64,000 nt of DNA. Origin: Acidimicrobiales bacterium (GTDB taxonomy: Bacteria; Actinomycetota; Acidimicrobiia; Acidimicrobiales; VFJN01). Below the pieces are notes generated by a model. That model was not told the DNA's origin and did not search any database. It was given only the letters and a program-made list of their open reading frames with translations. A program made the translations under genes and the position numbers. The stretch lies in the NCBI GenBank assembly GCA_035316325.1, contig DATHJB010000103.1:1-64000 (forward strand), read 5' to 3'. Positions 33,133 through 37,022 of the stretch are shown piece after piece (the first letter of the stretch is position 1; each line of letters opens with the position of its first letter).

Positions 33133-33501
33133 ATGACGCTGCAACTCGCCAACGTGTCCTTCGACTGCGACGACGCGCTGAAGGTCGCCACCTTCTGGTC
33201 GGCGGTGCTCGACCGTCCGCTCGACGCCGACGCGAGCGAGGACTTCGCCTCCATCGGCGCCGGCTCCCATGGCACGGGCGGTCAGGGCTGGCTGTTCACC
33301 AAGGTCCCGGAGCCCAAGGTCGCCAAGAACCGCTGCCACGTCGACCTCCACGCCGACGACCGGGACGGGGTCCAGAGCGAGGTCGACCGCCTCGTCGGCC
33401 TGGGAGCCACCGTGCTGCGCGACCCCAAGGAGGAGTTCGGCGTCTACTGGGGCACCCTCCAGGACCCCGAGGGCAACGAGCTCTGCCTCGCCGCCCCCTG
33501 A
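33133..33501 (+). CDS. VOC-family (glyoxalase-like) protein
   Basis: This 122-aa protein has the two beta-alpha-beta-beta-beta modules of the vicinal oxygen chelate superfamily: VSFDCDDALKVATFWSAVLDRP at the start and the C-terminal HVDLHADDRDG ... LGATVLRDPKEEFGVYWGTLQDPEGNELCLA. The final Glu and the mid His could be metal ligands. The function could be drug binding, dioxygenase or isomerase; this cannot be told. A MerR-type box precedes it. A diverged fragment of a similar gene lies at 35403-35475, on the far side of the kinase/HIRAN pair. Confidence 0.85.
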   Translation: MTLQLANVSFDCDDALKVATFWSAVLDRPLDADASEDFASIGAGSHGTGGQGWLFTKVPEPKVAKNRCHVDLHADDRDGVQSEVDRLVGLGATVLRDPKEEFGVYWGTLQDPEGNELCLAAP

Positions 33502-33695
33502 GTAGCCCGCTCGGCCCGTCCGGATGCCCAACGAAGGCCGGGGTCGGGGCGGATAGCGCACGTGGTGTCAACGGGCCTAAGCCTCGATGGCCTGTCGGGT
33601 CGTGACAGTGCCCGCCTGTAGGGTGCATCGTCCGGACCAGTTGACCTGGTACGAGCCAGCTCACGGCCCATCCCAGGAACTGTTCAGAGGCCACG
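33502..33695. other. Intergenic, left edge of accessory patch
   Basis: These 194 bp hold no gene that I can support. No helix-turn-helix (HipB-like) reading frame precedes the kinase. Base composition begins to drop here compared with the flanks. A promoter for the kinase gene must lie here, but I cannot pick it. Confidence 0.4.
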
Positions 33696-34589
33696 ATGCC
33701 GTTCCTCATCATTGACGTATCAGGCTGGCCACCCGCCAGGGAGGAGCAACTCGGCACCAAGCCGAAGCAATGGCTGGCCCGCCCTTCCGATGGTGGGCTC
33801 TGGCTATGGAAGGAGTCGACCTGGAACGTCGGCAAAGGCGGGGACCCCTACCGAAAGGGCGATGACTGGTCCGAGCGAATCGCGTGCGAGGTCGGGCGAG
33901 CTCTCGGCATTCCAGTTGCCGAGGTCGAGCTTGCCTCCCACCACGGACGTCTCGGCGTTGTCAGCCGACGTTTCGTGAACAGCTCCGAGGGACTGGTTCA
34001 TGGCAACGAGCTCCTCGCGCAGCAGAACGATCCGTGTAGCGCCCCGACCTACACGGTTGGGACGGTGATGTCGGTTCTCTCGGACGTGGCGCCGCCGGAC
34101 GATCACCATGCGTTGCCAACTGCTATCGACTGGTTCGCCGGCTACCTGGTTCTCGATGCACTCGTCGGCAACACCGATCGTCACATCGAGAATTGGGGAG
34201 TCATCCGTCGCACGGGTGATCCGGACCGACTCGCTCCAAGTTTCGACCACGCCTCCAGCTTGGGATTCCTGCTCGACGATGACCAGCGGGCCGAGCTTCT
34301 GGAAGGCCGCGACATCAACCGCACAGTCCAGGCCTTTGCCTCCCGGACCCGTACGAAGTTCGACGATCGCCCGCACACAGCCGATGCCGCCCTCGATCTC
34401 CTCGCCCAACTGGATCCAGAGACTCGACAGCACTGGATCACCCGGGTGACGTCCTTGGAGTCCATCGATGATGTCCTGCACCGGGTCCCTGCCAGCAGCA
34501 TGAGCGAGACGGCTCGAGCCTTTGCTTCGAGTCTCTACCAGGAGAATCACGCCAAATTGTCACAGGGCTTTCGTAGTCTGAGTACATGA
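33696..34589 (+). CDS. HipA-type Ser/Thr kinase domain protein (HipT-like)
   Basis: This 297-aa kinase corresponds to the C-terminal kinase half of HipA without its N-terminal subdomain. The ATP-site Lys lies in LWLWKE (Lys39). Helix WSERIACEVGRALGIPVAEV (58-77) is typical of the family. The catalytic loop is GNTDRHIEN (158-166, Asp161, Asn166) and the metal-binding motif is PSFDHASSLG (Asp184). HipA-family kinases phosphorylate tRNA synthetases or other proteins and cause growth arrest; the target here is unknown. Codon use is clearly less GC-rich than in the neighbours. The stop overlaps the start of the HIRAN gene (ATGA). Confidence 0.8.
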   Translation: MPFLIIDVSGWPPAREEQLGTKPKQWLARPSDGGLWLWKESTWNVGKGGDPYRKGDDWSERIACEVGRALGIPVAEVELASHHGRLGVVSRRFVNSSEGLVHGNELLAQQNDPCSAPTYTVGTVMSVLSDVAPPDDHHALPTAIDWFAGYLVLDALVGNTDRHIENWGVIRRTGDPDRLAPSFDHASSLGFLLDDDQRAELLEGRDINRTVQAFASRTRTKFDDRPHTADAALDLLAQLDPETRQHWITRVTSLESIDDVLHRVPASSMSETARAFASSLYQENHAKLSQGFRSLST

Positions 34590-35347
34590 CCAGCGAACAC
34601 GGCTCGACCGAGCGTCGTCTCTACGTGTCCTGGCGCGACCCGATCGGCTCGATCCATCCGATCGGCATGCTTGTTCGACGTCGAGGTGCAGAAGGCGAGC
34701 GGTTCCTCTTCGCCTATCTGAAGCTGGCCGAGCAACTCCCCGAGTTCAGGCCGCTACCTGGCTTGCCAGAGCTGCACAGGCGTTACGAGAGCCGATCGCT
34801 GTTCCCTGTGTTCGCTAACCGTGTTATGCCTCGGAGCCGACCGGACTTCGACCTCCTTGCTCATCGCGTCGACCTCGATGGCGATGCGGATCCCTTCGAG
34901 GTCATGGCCCGTAGCGGAGGCGTGCGTGCCACCGATCGGATCGAGGTCTTCTCGGGACCTGTGCGGACAGCGGAGAACCGAACGACTTGTCTCTTCTTCG
35001 CTCGAGGTATCCGGCACATCGAGGGTGCTGAGCAAGCAGTCGCTGACCTGGTACCGGGGGATCGACTCGTGCTGACCCTCGACCCGATGAATGACTTCAA
35101 CCCTCGGGCCATGCTGATGCGAGTCAGCGACGGACGCTCCGTCGGATACGTCCCCGACTATCTCCTCGAGCACATCCACGAGCTTCGCGATCTAAACGGT
35201 TCCGACCCAGAGATCCTGGTCGAGCACGTCAACGACGAGACAACGGCACCGCATCTCCGCCTCCTTTGCCGTCTAGATGCTCCTTGGCCACCTGGCTACG
35301 AACCCTTCTCCGACGCGCAGTTCAGGCCGTTGGCGTCGCTCGCTTGA
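34586..35347 (+). CDS. HipA N1-like plus HIRAN domain fusion (HipS-like partner)
   Basis: This is a 253-aa two-part protein. Residues about 10-115 resemble the small N-terminal subdomain of HipA (RLYVSWRDPIGSIHPIGML, RFLFAYLK, FRPLPGLPELHRRYESRSLFP), which in HipBST is a separate protein, HipS, that neutralises the kinase. Residues about 133-230 look like a HIRAN domain, a fold that recognises damaged or single-strand DNA ends: PGDRLVLTLDPMNDFNPRAML and GRSVGYVPDYLLEHI. The 4-bp overlap with the kinase implies coupled translation. I infer that it restrains or recruits the kinase. Domain calls are from motif recognition only. Confidence 0.65.
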   Translation: MTSEHGSTERRLYVSWRDPIGSIHPIGMLVRRRGAEGERFLFAYLKLAEQLPEFRPLPGLPELHRRYESRSLFPVFANRVMPRSRPDFDLLAHRVDLDGDADPFEVMARSGGVRATDRIEVFSGPVRTAENRTTCLFFARGIRHIEGAEQAVADLVPGDRLVLTLDPMNDFNPRAMLMRVSDGRSVGYVPDYLLEHIHELRDLNGSDPEILVEHVNDETTAPHLRLLCRLDAPWPPGYEPFSDAQFRPLASLA

Positions 35348-35402
35348 GCGACTCGTTCGTCCATCGCAGTACTCGTATCGTCGAGTCACAGTTCTTGGTC
35401 TG

Positions 35403-35475
35403 GGCTACATGACCGAGCTCAAGGTGGCCAAGAACCGCCGCCAGGTTGACCCCGTCGCCGACGACCGCGACGCTC
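35403..35475 (+). pseudogene. Fragment of a VOC-family gene
   Basis: The translation GYMTELKVAKNRRQVDPVADDRD aligns with the VOC protein at 33133 in its KVAKNRCHVDLHADDRDG segment. Over about 58 nt I count about 49 identical bases by hand. No start, N-terminal half or C-terminal half remains. It looks like the stump of a paralogue. Confidence 0.6.
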
Positions 35476-35479
35476 CGGG

Positions 35480-35690
35480 TCACCCTGCCGCGCCCGCTCC
35501 AGCAGCTCCACCACCCTGAGTACGTCAGCCCACCGGTCAAGGTGCTCCCGGTCGAGTGCCTCCCCACCCACCGCCAGCACGGTCGCCGCGTCAGCAACCT
35601 GCCGATCGGACCCCCCATCGCCGCCCACTCCAACTTGGCCAACACGGTGTCCTCCGCCGTGGCGACGTAGATCTCCACGCGCCAACCTCG
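35480..35690 (-). pseudogene. Frameshifted remnant of a nucleotidyltransferase-type partner gene
   Basis: Two adjacent minus-strand frames join into one recognisable C-terminal sequence. EIYVATAEDTVLAKLEWAAMGG is in one frame, and GGSDRQVADAATVLAVGGEALDREHLDRWADVL continues in another. The break is at the six-G run 35611-35616, where one missing base would explain it. Such C-termini belong to small nucleotidyltransferase-like or AbiEii-like partner proteins encoded next to a short gene like the one at 35710. The N-terminal catalytic part is absent. Confidence 0.6.
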
Positions 35691-35709
35691 GAGAGCAGGT
35701 CGGGAGCCC

Positions 35710-35961
35710 TCACGGAGCCAACAAGGGGGCGTCGGGCCAGACCTTGCGGAAGGTCGCCTCGCCCAGCCGCAGTTTCCGGAGCGCCCAGCGGACCTGGGAC
35801 TCGTCGTAGTTCGGGTGGCGGGTACGGATCCCGTGCTCGGCGAGCGTCCAGACGTCTTCGGAGAGCTCGAGAGCGATCACCAGACGGCGTTCGGGCGACA
35901 TCGACCGGTACACCTCGATCTGCCGGGCGTAGATCTCCGGTGAGGTGTCGGCGCTGCGCAT
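35710..35961 (-). CDS. Small conserved protein (partner of two-gene module)
   Basis: This 83-aa helical protein has the core YRSMSPERRLVIALELSEDV, then GIRTRHPNYDESQVRWALRKL and LGEATFRKVWP. I recognise this as the short first gene of a common two-gene pair whose second gene encodes a nucleotidyltransferase-like protein. The second gene here is the frameshifted remnant just downstream, so the pair is probably inactive. Function is unknown, possibly toxin-antitoxin-like. Confidence 0.65.
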   Translation of the reverse strand: MRSADTSPEIYARQIEVYRSMSPERRLVIALELSEDVWTLAEHGIRTRHPNYDESQVRWALRKLRLGEATFRKVWPDAPLLAP

Positions 35962-36053
35962 GGCGTCAGCCTAAGCAGGTCTTCGGAACCAGGCGAGGCA
36001 CTTCGGCGTCGAGGGTGTGGTACACCTCGGGCGAGATACAGGGGGGAAATCAG

Positions 36054-37022
36054 ATGGCACCACGACTCCTTTCCGGGGGCGGGTTGGCGCGGGCGTTGGC
36101 GGTCGCGGTTGTGGCGGTGGCAGCTGTGGGGCTGCCGGGCACGGCGCTGGCCCAGGAGGACCCGCACGAACCCGGGCACGGCGACGGGCTGGTCCCGCCG
36201 GGTGAATGGACGCACGAGGAGATCGAGATCCTGCTCGACCTCATCGACCGCACCGAGGCGGAGCTGCCCGCCTTCGCCGACCCGGCCGACCTGCCCGAGG
36301 GCTTCTACGACTTCGGCGTGACCGCCCCGGGCGGCTACGACCACTACATCAACTGGGAGTGGCTCGACGACGGGCACATCCTCGACCCGGAGCACCCGGA
36401 GTCGCTCGTCTACCAGCGCACCTGGAACGACGAGACCCAGCAGCAGGAGACCACGCTGGTCTCGGCGATGTTCTTCCTGCCGACCCAGTTCGACGCCACC
36501 AACATCCCGGCCGACCTGGCCTGGTACCCGGGCTGGCACACCCACGCCGACATCTGCATCAACGAGCAGCACCGCTTCGCCGGCCTGTCGTCGGGCGGCC
36601 AGTGCAGCTCGGGCGTGCCGTTCGACCGGCCGCCGATGATGCACGTGTGGATCGAGGACAACGAGTGCGACCACCGCTTCGGCGGGGTCGACATCGGCGG
36701 CCTGCACTGCGACGTCCACGGCGGCCACATGCCGGAGGACCCCGAGGACCCGCACGAGCCACACGACCCCGAGGAGCCGCACGAGCCCGAGGCGCCACAC
36801 GACCCCGAGGCGCCACACGATCCCGAGGGCCCGCACGATCCCGAGGCGCCGCACGATCCCGAGGCGCCGCACGATCCGCAGCACCCGGAGCACCCTAACG
36901 ACCCGCAGGCGCCGCACGATCCGGGCCACGATCCCGGGGACGACATGGGCGACGACGGCCACGACGACCACGTCCCGCCGGCCGCGACACCCACCCACCG
37001 ACACCCCGATACCGCCGGATAG
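36054..37022 (+). CDS. Secreted protein with His/Asp/Glu/Pro hexapeptide repeats
   Basis: This 322-aa exported protein has a signal peptide of about 33 residues ending GTALA-QE. A folded domain follows (about 50-225), rich in aromatic, acidic and His residues (WYPGWHTHADICINEQHRF, PPMMHVWIEDNECDHRFGG) with four Cys. The C-terminal third (about 225-300) is a tandem array of PHDPEA/PHEPEE-type units, then an Asp/Gly/His tail. Metal binding (Ca, Zn or Fe) at the surface is plausible. The start is the ATG at 36054 with GGGGGG upstream. Confidence 0.75.
   Translation: MAPRLLSGGGLARALAVAVVAVAAVGLPGTALAQEDPHEPGHGDGLVPPGEWTHEEIEILLDLIDRTEAELPAFADPADLPEGFYDFGVTAPGGYDHYINWEWLDDGHILDPEHPESLVYQRTWNDETQQQETTLVSAMFFLPTQFDATNIPADLAWYPGWHTHADICINEQHRFAGLSSGGQCSSGVPFDRPPMMHVWIEDNECDHRFGGVDIGGLHCDVHGGHMPEDPEDPHEPHDPEEPHEPEAPHDPEAPHDPEGPHDPEAPHDPEAPHDPQHPEHPNDPQAPHDPGHDPGDDMGDDGHDDHVPPAATPTHRHPDTAG

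What the first reader, a model, noticed from the sequence alone, without database searches (positions are those of the whole stretch)
33696..35347. Two-gene HipA-type kinase / HipA-N1-HIRAN module
The kinase gene looks like HipA without its N-terminal subdomain (Lys39, GNTDRHIEN, PSFDHASS). The overlapping downstream gene begins with a segment that looks like that missing subdomain and continues into a HIRAN domain. In HipBST the detached N-subdomain (HipS) is the antitoxin; here it appears fused to a DNA-end-binding domain and the order is reversed (kinase first), with no HipB-like HTH gene upstream. This suggests a kinase whose release or targeting depends on DNA damage or foreign DNA, i.e. 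a possible defence or stress module that I do not recognise as described. The domain motifs are seen in the sequence; the regulatory idea is inference.
Basis: partly seen in the sequence, partly recalled or inferred. Interest (0 to 1): 0.85.

Follow-up and report, generated by a model that had tools for sequence, protein, structure and literature searches.

The report
hipIN kinase toxin–antitoxin pair (known family)
Two overlapping genes encode a HipA-like protein kinase and a partner made of HipA's missing front piece fused to a HIRAN domain; this is a member of the already described hipIN toxin–antitoxin family, a candidate but untested phage-defence system, here probably acquired by horizontal transfer.

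Summary
33696-34589 (+) encodes a 297-aa HipA-type kinase lacking N-subdomain 1. 34586-35347 (+), overlapping by ATGA, encodes 253 aa: a HipA-N1/HipS-like domain followed by a HIRAN domain. Profile comparison supports the first half, AlphaFold and Foldseek the second. HipN lies directly downstream of the kinase in 78 of 80 related genome loci from many phyla, and in temperate phages and plasmids.

The claim that it is undescribed is wrong. Gerdes et al. 2021 (PMC8262856) named this arrangement hipIN, including members from Actinobacteria, and proposed activation by phage DNA ends. PADLOC lists it as candidate system PDC-M03. It is a new member of a known, untested family.

New detail here: the pair is a low-GC island. 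In its nearest relative it sits inside a BREX operon, between brxD and brxHI; elsewhere it sits in type I R-M operons or beside prophage integrases. The HIRAN domain has lost several HLTF DNA-contact residues and is acidic (net -8), so "DNA-end-binding" is doubtful for this copy.

Best mechanism: the kinase toxin is held inactive by HipN's HipS-like domain; infection sensed through the HIRAN domain frees it, giving abortive infection. The anatomy is shown; regulation and function are inferred.

The parts
33696..34589 (+). hipI-like gene: HipA-family Ser/Thr kinase core without N-subdomain 1, 297 aa
   Evidence: Pfam HipA_C 4.8e-12; PADLOC PDC-M03A 1.2e-79; profile match to solved kinase CtkA 6.8e-19
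33810..33812 (+). codon of Lys39, nucleotide-binding lysine of the kinase
   Evidence: invariant in 14 homologues
34167..34193 (+). catalytic motif GNTDRHIEN (residues 158-166; D161, N166)
   Evidence: D161/R162/H163/N166 invariant in 14 homologues
34245..34247 (+). codon of Asp184, Mg-binding Asp in PSFDHASS
   Evidence: invariant in 14 homologues
34586..35347 (+). hipN-like gene: putative antitoxin, HipS-like domain + HIRAN domain, 253 aa, overlaps hipI by ATGA
   Evidence: PADLOC PDC-M03B 2.3e-77; AlphaFold pLDDT 94.9
34607..34951 (+). HipA-N1/HipS-like domain (residues 8-122); invariant F76, R79, R85, D117
   Evidence: hhalign to Couple_hipA/HipS profile prob 92, score 41 vs shuffle maximum 16.6; 103/103 invariance
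34973..35287 (+). HIRAN domain (residues 130-234), acidic in this copy
   Evidence: Pfam HIRAN 1.5e-6; Foldseek HLTF HIRAN 3.2e-5; net charge -8
33502..33695 (.). intergenic region upstream of hipI, presumed to hold the promoter (not tested)
   Evidence: no gene assigned between the glyoxalase stop and the hipI start

Best explanation
It is a hipIN-type two-gene toxin-antitoxin cassette acquired horizontally. HipI is a Ser/Thr kinase toxin. HipN's N-terminal HipS-like domain docks on the kinase where N-subdomain 1 sits in HipA and holds the ATP/Gly-rich-loop region inactive, probably through the loop carrying invariant R79/R85 that corresponds to the HipS loop carrying Glu63/Trp65. HipN's HIRAN domain is the sensor or regulatory arm. 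When it meets its ligand during phage infection or genome disturbance, the inhibition is released and HipI phosphorylates a host target (by analogy with HipA/HipT, a translation component), stopping growth as abortive infection. Shown: genes, domains, intact catalytic residues, pair conservation and co-divergence, a horizontal-transfer signature, association with defence loci and phages. Inferred: toxicity, neutralisation, HIRAN ligand, target, defence.
For: Intact catalytic residues. HipS-like domain by profile with shuffle control; 9 of 18 HipN relatives also hit Pfam Couple_hipA, best 0.0013. HIRAN fold. Kinase->HipN order in 78 of 80 loci; mirror-tree r 0.93 against a permutation maximum of 0.14. 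A natural single-chain fusion kinase-HipS-HIRAN in L171 suggests that the parts work together. Low GC3 (0.70-0.72 vs 0.95-0.97). In the nearest relative the pair sits between brxD and brxHI, in a Rhodococcus plasmid between hsdS and hsdM, and next to integrases in Vibrio PM2-like and C. difficile phages. HipS neutralises HipT by blocking the ATP site (PMC9325769, PMC10627512). A sister system, HipA-like kinase + DUF3037 (HipAD/DS-6/PDC-M66), is validated: the kinase is needed for phage defence and loss of the partner is toxic (PMC12548924, PMC13092281).
Against: No experiment on any hipIN was found. The window copy has no defence gene beside it. Foldseek did not return HipS/HipA-N1 for HipN, and the fusion model gave no confident docking (pTM 0.55). 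The HipS Glu63/Trp65 residues are not kept in HipN. The HIRAN DNA-contact residues are altered and the domain is acidic, so the trigger may not be DNA. Defence neighbours were counted without a background control.
Confidence: 0.62

Rival explanations
1. A plain addiction/stabilisation toxin-antitoxin module of mobile elements, maintained by linkage and not by phage defence; HIRAN serves only folding, turnover or autoregulation.
For: Found on plasmids, in temperate phages next to integrases and as a low-GC island; no defence gene adjacent in the window.
Against: Positions inside BREX and type I R-M operons, broad conservation of HIRAN, and validated defence by the sister HipAD system are not needed for pure addiction.
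Confidence: 0.2
2. HipN is not an antitoxin but an activator/targeting subunit: HipI+HipN together rebuild a complete HipA-like kinase and HIRAN brings it to substrates (DNA-end complexes or proteins).
For: In HipA the N1 subdomain is part of the active enzyme; fused HipL keeps kinase, HipS-like and HIRAN domains in one chain; the Trp65 wedge of HipS is missing in HipN.
Against: In HipBST the detached N1 equivalent inhibits; in the sister system removal of the partner is toxic.
Confidence: 0.12
3. Decayed or non-functional remnant in this genome.
For: Isolated low-GC insert beside a truncated gene remnant and a glyoxalase fragment.
Against: Both reading frames are full length with all catalytic and invariant residues and keep the ATGA overlap.
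Confidence: 0.05

Closest known systems
hipIN (HipI kinase + HipN HipS-HIRAN putative antitoxin), Gerdes et al. 2021, PMC8262856
   Same: Gene order, bicistron, core kinase without N1, HipS-like plus HIRAN partner, presence in Actinobacteria, degenerate HIRAN DNA motifs in Actinobacteria
   Different: Nothing found that separates it; clade XI placement on the published Hip tree was not recomputed
PDC-M03 (PADLOC-DB phage defence candidate)
   Same: Both proteins match the A and B profiles at 1e-79 and 2e-77
   Different: The window copy is not itself inside a known defence operon
HipAD / DS-6 / PDC-M66 (HipA-like kinase + DUF3037), PMC12548924, PMC13092281
   Same: HipA-family kinase with a non-HipB partner; kinase needed for phage defence, partner prevents toxicity
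   Different: Partner is DUF3037/DUF1829, not HipS-HIRAN; no DUF3037 match in 18 HipN proteins
HipBST (E. coli O127, Legionella), PMC10627512, PMC9325769
   Same: N1-like domain on a separate protein from the kinase
   Different: Here kinase first, no HipB, partner carries HIRAN, Glu63/Trp65 loop replaced by an invariant-Arg loop
HipL (kinase-HipS-HIRAN in one chain)
   Same: Same three domains in the same order; a natural fusion is seen in viral contig L171
   Different: One gene rather than two; HIRAN in that fusion keeps more of the DNA-contact pattern (NxxDxxAI, GYVNK)

Membership tests
hipIN | HipA-homologous core kinase lacking N-subdomain 1, kinase motifs intact | tested here: met
   HipA_C only, 297 aa; K39, E60, D161, N166, D184 invariant
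hipIN | downstream partner gene with N-terminal HipS-like and C-terminal HIRAN domain | tested here: met
   hhalign to HipS/N1 profile and HIRAN by Pfam/Foldseek; same order in 78 of 80 relatives
[quoted passage not shown]
   Thr21 in LGTKPKQW, aligned with GT/GS in most relatives
hipIN | kinase falls in clade XI of the Hip tree | not tested
hipIN | HipI toxic, HipN neutralises | not testable with these tools
   not shown for any hipIN in the papers read; PMC8262856 calls HipN a putative antitoxin
PDC-M03 (PADLOC) | matches to both M03A and M03B profiles in adjacent genes | tested here: met
   1.2e-79 and 2.3e-77
HipBST | three genes hipB-hipS-hipT with an HTH HipB upstream | tested here: not met
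   adjacent upstream gene is a glyoxalase; order kinase first
HipBA | full-length HipA with N1 plus HipB | tested here: not met
   no N1 in the kinase; no Couple_hipA match in the genome
HipAD/PDC-M66 | partner with DUF3037 | tested here: not met
   no DUF3037 among HipN Pfam matches
DNA-end-binding HIRAN (HLTF type) | DNA-contact residues R71, Y72, Y93, D94, H110, K113 kept | tested here: not met
   R71 kept; Y72->H, Y93->F, D94->N, H110->Y, K113->D; net charge -8 vs +3

The most novel reading that the evidence does not exclude
In the actinobacterial hipIN lineage the HIRAN domain has given up DNA-end binding (acidic, D94->N, K113->D, yet with its own conserved NxxN / G[WY]xPD pattern) and senses something else, for example the state of the BREX or R-M machinery in which the pair is sometimes embedded. 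HipI would then be a guard kinase that fires when a phage disables the primary defence.
Probability: 0.18. Interest if true: 0.65.

Novelty: new member of a known kind. Interest (0 to 1): 0.36.

Why it matters
hipIN is widespread across bacterial phyla, on plasmids and in temperate phages, but no experimental test of it was found. The evidence gives concrete tests: a HipS-like domain with two invariant arginines in the loop that carries the inhibitory Trp in HipS, a HIRAN domain that in Actinobacteria probably does not bind DNA ends in the HLTF way, and embedding inside BREX and type I restriction operons. Showing what the HIRAN domain senses would tell how a HipA-type kinase is switched on by infection.

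Tried and rejected
The first hhalign run used wrong strands for half of the HipA-N1 loci and is discarded; one search is the corrected run. Full-length MAFFT alignments of the HipL fusion with separate kinases and HipNs misplaced the kinase C-lobe; the final one (A9) left the C-lobe without relatives, and the resulting model (pLDDT 77, pTM 0.55) cannot show how the HipS-like domain docks. A viral scan with the HipL fusion found only itself. The neighbour gene caller sometimes picked the wrong strand in high-GC DNA (in L083 it hid brxHI), so neighbour counts are lower bounds. The preprint that defined the PDC systems is not in the paper library. The high ranking of PADLOC mad2/mad5 among neighbours may only reflect cross-matches of type I methylase and specificity subunits; not pursued.

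Full report
What is there. Two plus-strand genes occupy 33696-35347. The first (33696-34589, 297 aa) is a HipA-family kinase: Pfam HipA_C E 4.8e-12. Its nearest solved relative by profile is the stand-alone kinase CtkA (6.8e-19). K39, E60, D161, N166 and D184 are invariant across 14 diverse homologues. The second (34586-35347, 253 aa) starts inside the first gene's stop (ATGA). Pfam sees only its HIRAN domain (1.5e-6, residues 137-229). Its first half matches a profile built from Couple_hipA domains, including a stand-alone HipS-like ORF: hhalign probability 92, score 41.1, while 100 column-shuffled versions reached at most 16.6 and the HIRAN half scored 11.9. Half of 18 HipN relatives also match Pfam Couple_hipA weakly. 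AlphaFold on 56 relatives gave pLDDT 94.9. Foldseek matched the HIRAN half to HLTF HIRAN and 3k2y, but did not return HipS or HipA-N1 for the first half.

It is a known arrangement. Gerdes, Baerentsen and Brodersen 2021 (PMC8262856) describe exactly this as hipIN: HipI core kinase followed by HipN, a HipS-like plus HIRAN putative antitoxin, in clade XI of the Hip tree, with Actinobacteria among the hosts. They also suggest that HIRAN senses phage DNA ends and releases the kinase for abortive infection, and they note that actinobacterial HipN lacks most HLTF DNA-binding motifs. PADLOC holds the pair as candidate defence system PDC-M03; both window proteins match at 1e-79 and 2e-77. A 2025 paper on deoxydinucleases (PMC11706625) found HipA+HIRAN pairs beside a third of its genes.

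Conservation and spread. A scan of 84,980 species genomes with the kinase gave 80 retained loci from many phyla. In 78 of them HipN lies directly downstream; one exception is at a contig end and the other has a shortened kinase match near a contig end. Kinase and HipN distances correlate (r 0.93, 75 pairs; permutation maximum 0.14; this statistic also reflects shared vertical descent). In the window's phylum 10 of 397 sampled genomes, the window's own included, hold a full-length or nearly full-length HipN. The window's genome has one copy and no other HipA_C protein. The pair is 62% GC in a 73% GC window, with third-position GC 0.70-0.72 against 0.95-0.97 for neighbours: a signature of horizontal acquisition.

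Context. In the nearest relative (L083, HipN 64% identical) hipI starts 8 nt after the brxD stop and brxHI follows hipN, so the pair is embedded in a BREX operon (BrxD 1e-202, BrxHI 1e-285). In a Rhodococcus plasmid it lies between hsdS and hsdM. Among the 80 genome loci, 13 have recognisable type I R-M or BREX genes within the fetched flanks (lower bound, no background control). Four Vibrio tailless (Vinavirales) phage records and C. difficile phage phiCDKH02 carry the pair; in the three records opened (two Vibrio, one C. difficile) it lies next to the integrase gene, a usual place for accessory genes. A viral contig carries a natural single-chain kinase-HipS-HIRAN fusion (HipL; L171). In the window itself no defence gene is adjacent.

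Is the HIRAN domain a DNA-end reader here? Mapped on HLTF by the profile alignment, the window protein keeps R71 (R143), N91, A97 and G109 but has H for Y72, F for Y93, N for D94, Y for H110 and D for K113. Over 35 actinobacterial HipN, D94 is N in 32 and K113 is D in 26. In 49 others K113 is mostly R but Y93/D94 are often A/T; in viral contigs D94 is kept in 11 of 12. The window HIRAN has net charge -8 (actinobacterial mean -4.8, other genomes 0.1, HLTF segment +3). The HLTF sequence, its numbering and the residue roles come from general knowledge of the HLTF structures, with Gerdes et al. for the motif idea. This argues against classical DNA-end binding in this lineage; it does not exclude a different ligand.

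How it most likely works. HipS in E. coli and Legionella binds HipT as N-subdomain 1 binds in HipA and blocks ATP binding, in E. coli by Trp65 inserted beside the Gly-rich loop (PMC10627512, PMC9325769). HipN has no Trp there; the corresponding loop, as aligned (register uncertain by one or two residues), carries R79 and R85, both invariant in 103 of 103 sequences, as are F76 and D117. I infer that this loop is the inhibitory contact and that HIRAN is the release arm. A sister system, HipA-like kinase + DUF3037 (HipAD/DS-6/PDC-M66), has been shown to defend against phage in a kinase-dependent way, with the partner preventing toxicity (PMC12548924, PMC13092281). That makes a phage-defence toxin-antitoxin role for hipIN likely, but no experiment on hipIN itself was found. 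The attempt to see the docking through the natural fusion was inconclusive (pTM 0.55).

Verdict. A well-preserved, horizontally acquired member of the hipIN / PDC-M03 family. Observation confirmed, interpretation partly supported, novelty low, with a useful lead in the altered acidic HIRAN domain and the BREX/R-M embedding.

Noticed in passing
33310-33367 and 35415-35472: A 58-nt direct repeat (84%) brackets the low-GC pair: one copy inside an intact glyoxalase (VOC) gene upstream, the other a short VOC-like remnant just after hipN; possible trace of the insertion or of a duplicated gene.
   Followed up: partly
35325-35961 (-): A small ORF weakly like the Rv0078B antitoxin (E 0.008, below Pfam cut-off) followed by a truncated, frame-broken remnant of what looks like its partner gene: possibly a decayed second toxin-antitoxin pair beside hipIN.
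   Followed up: partly
L171 7516-9165: Natural single-chain HipL-type fusion (kinase, HipS-like, HIRAN) in an IMG/VR viral contig.
   Followed up: yes
L074, L075 (PQ189359.1, PQ189286.1): Tailless Vinavirales phage records of Vibrio carry hipIN as cargo next to the integrase.
   Followed up: partly
L146 8842-9525 and 13492-14175: Rathayibacter contig with two HipN genes about 5 kb apart.
   Followed up: no
L083 (PKRH01000096.1): Deposited as Thermoanaerobacterales, yet it appears to be the same contig as the same-family relative G001 of the window genome, whose other relatives are actinobacterial; the deposited name looks wrong.
   Followed up: no
35556-37022 (+): ORF that probably holds a secreted protein with a tail of PHDPE/APHDPE-type repeats; no Pfam match.
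   Followed up: no
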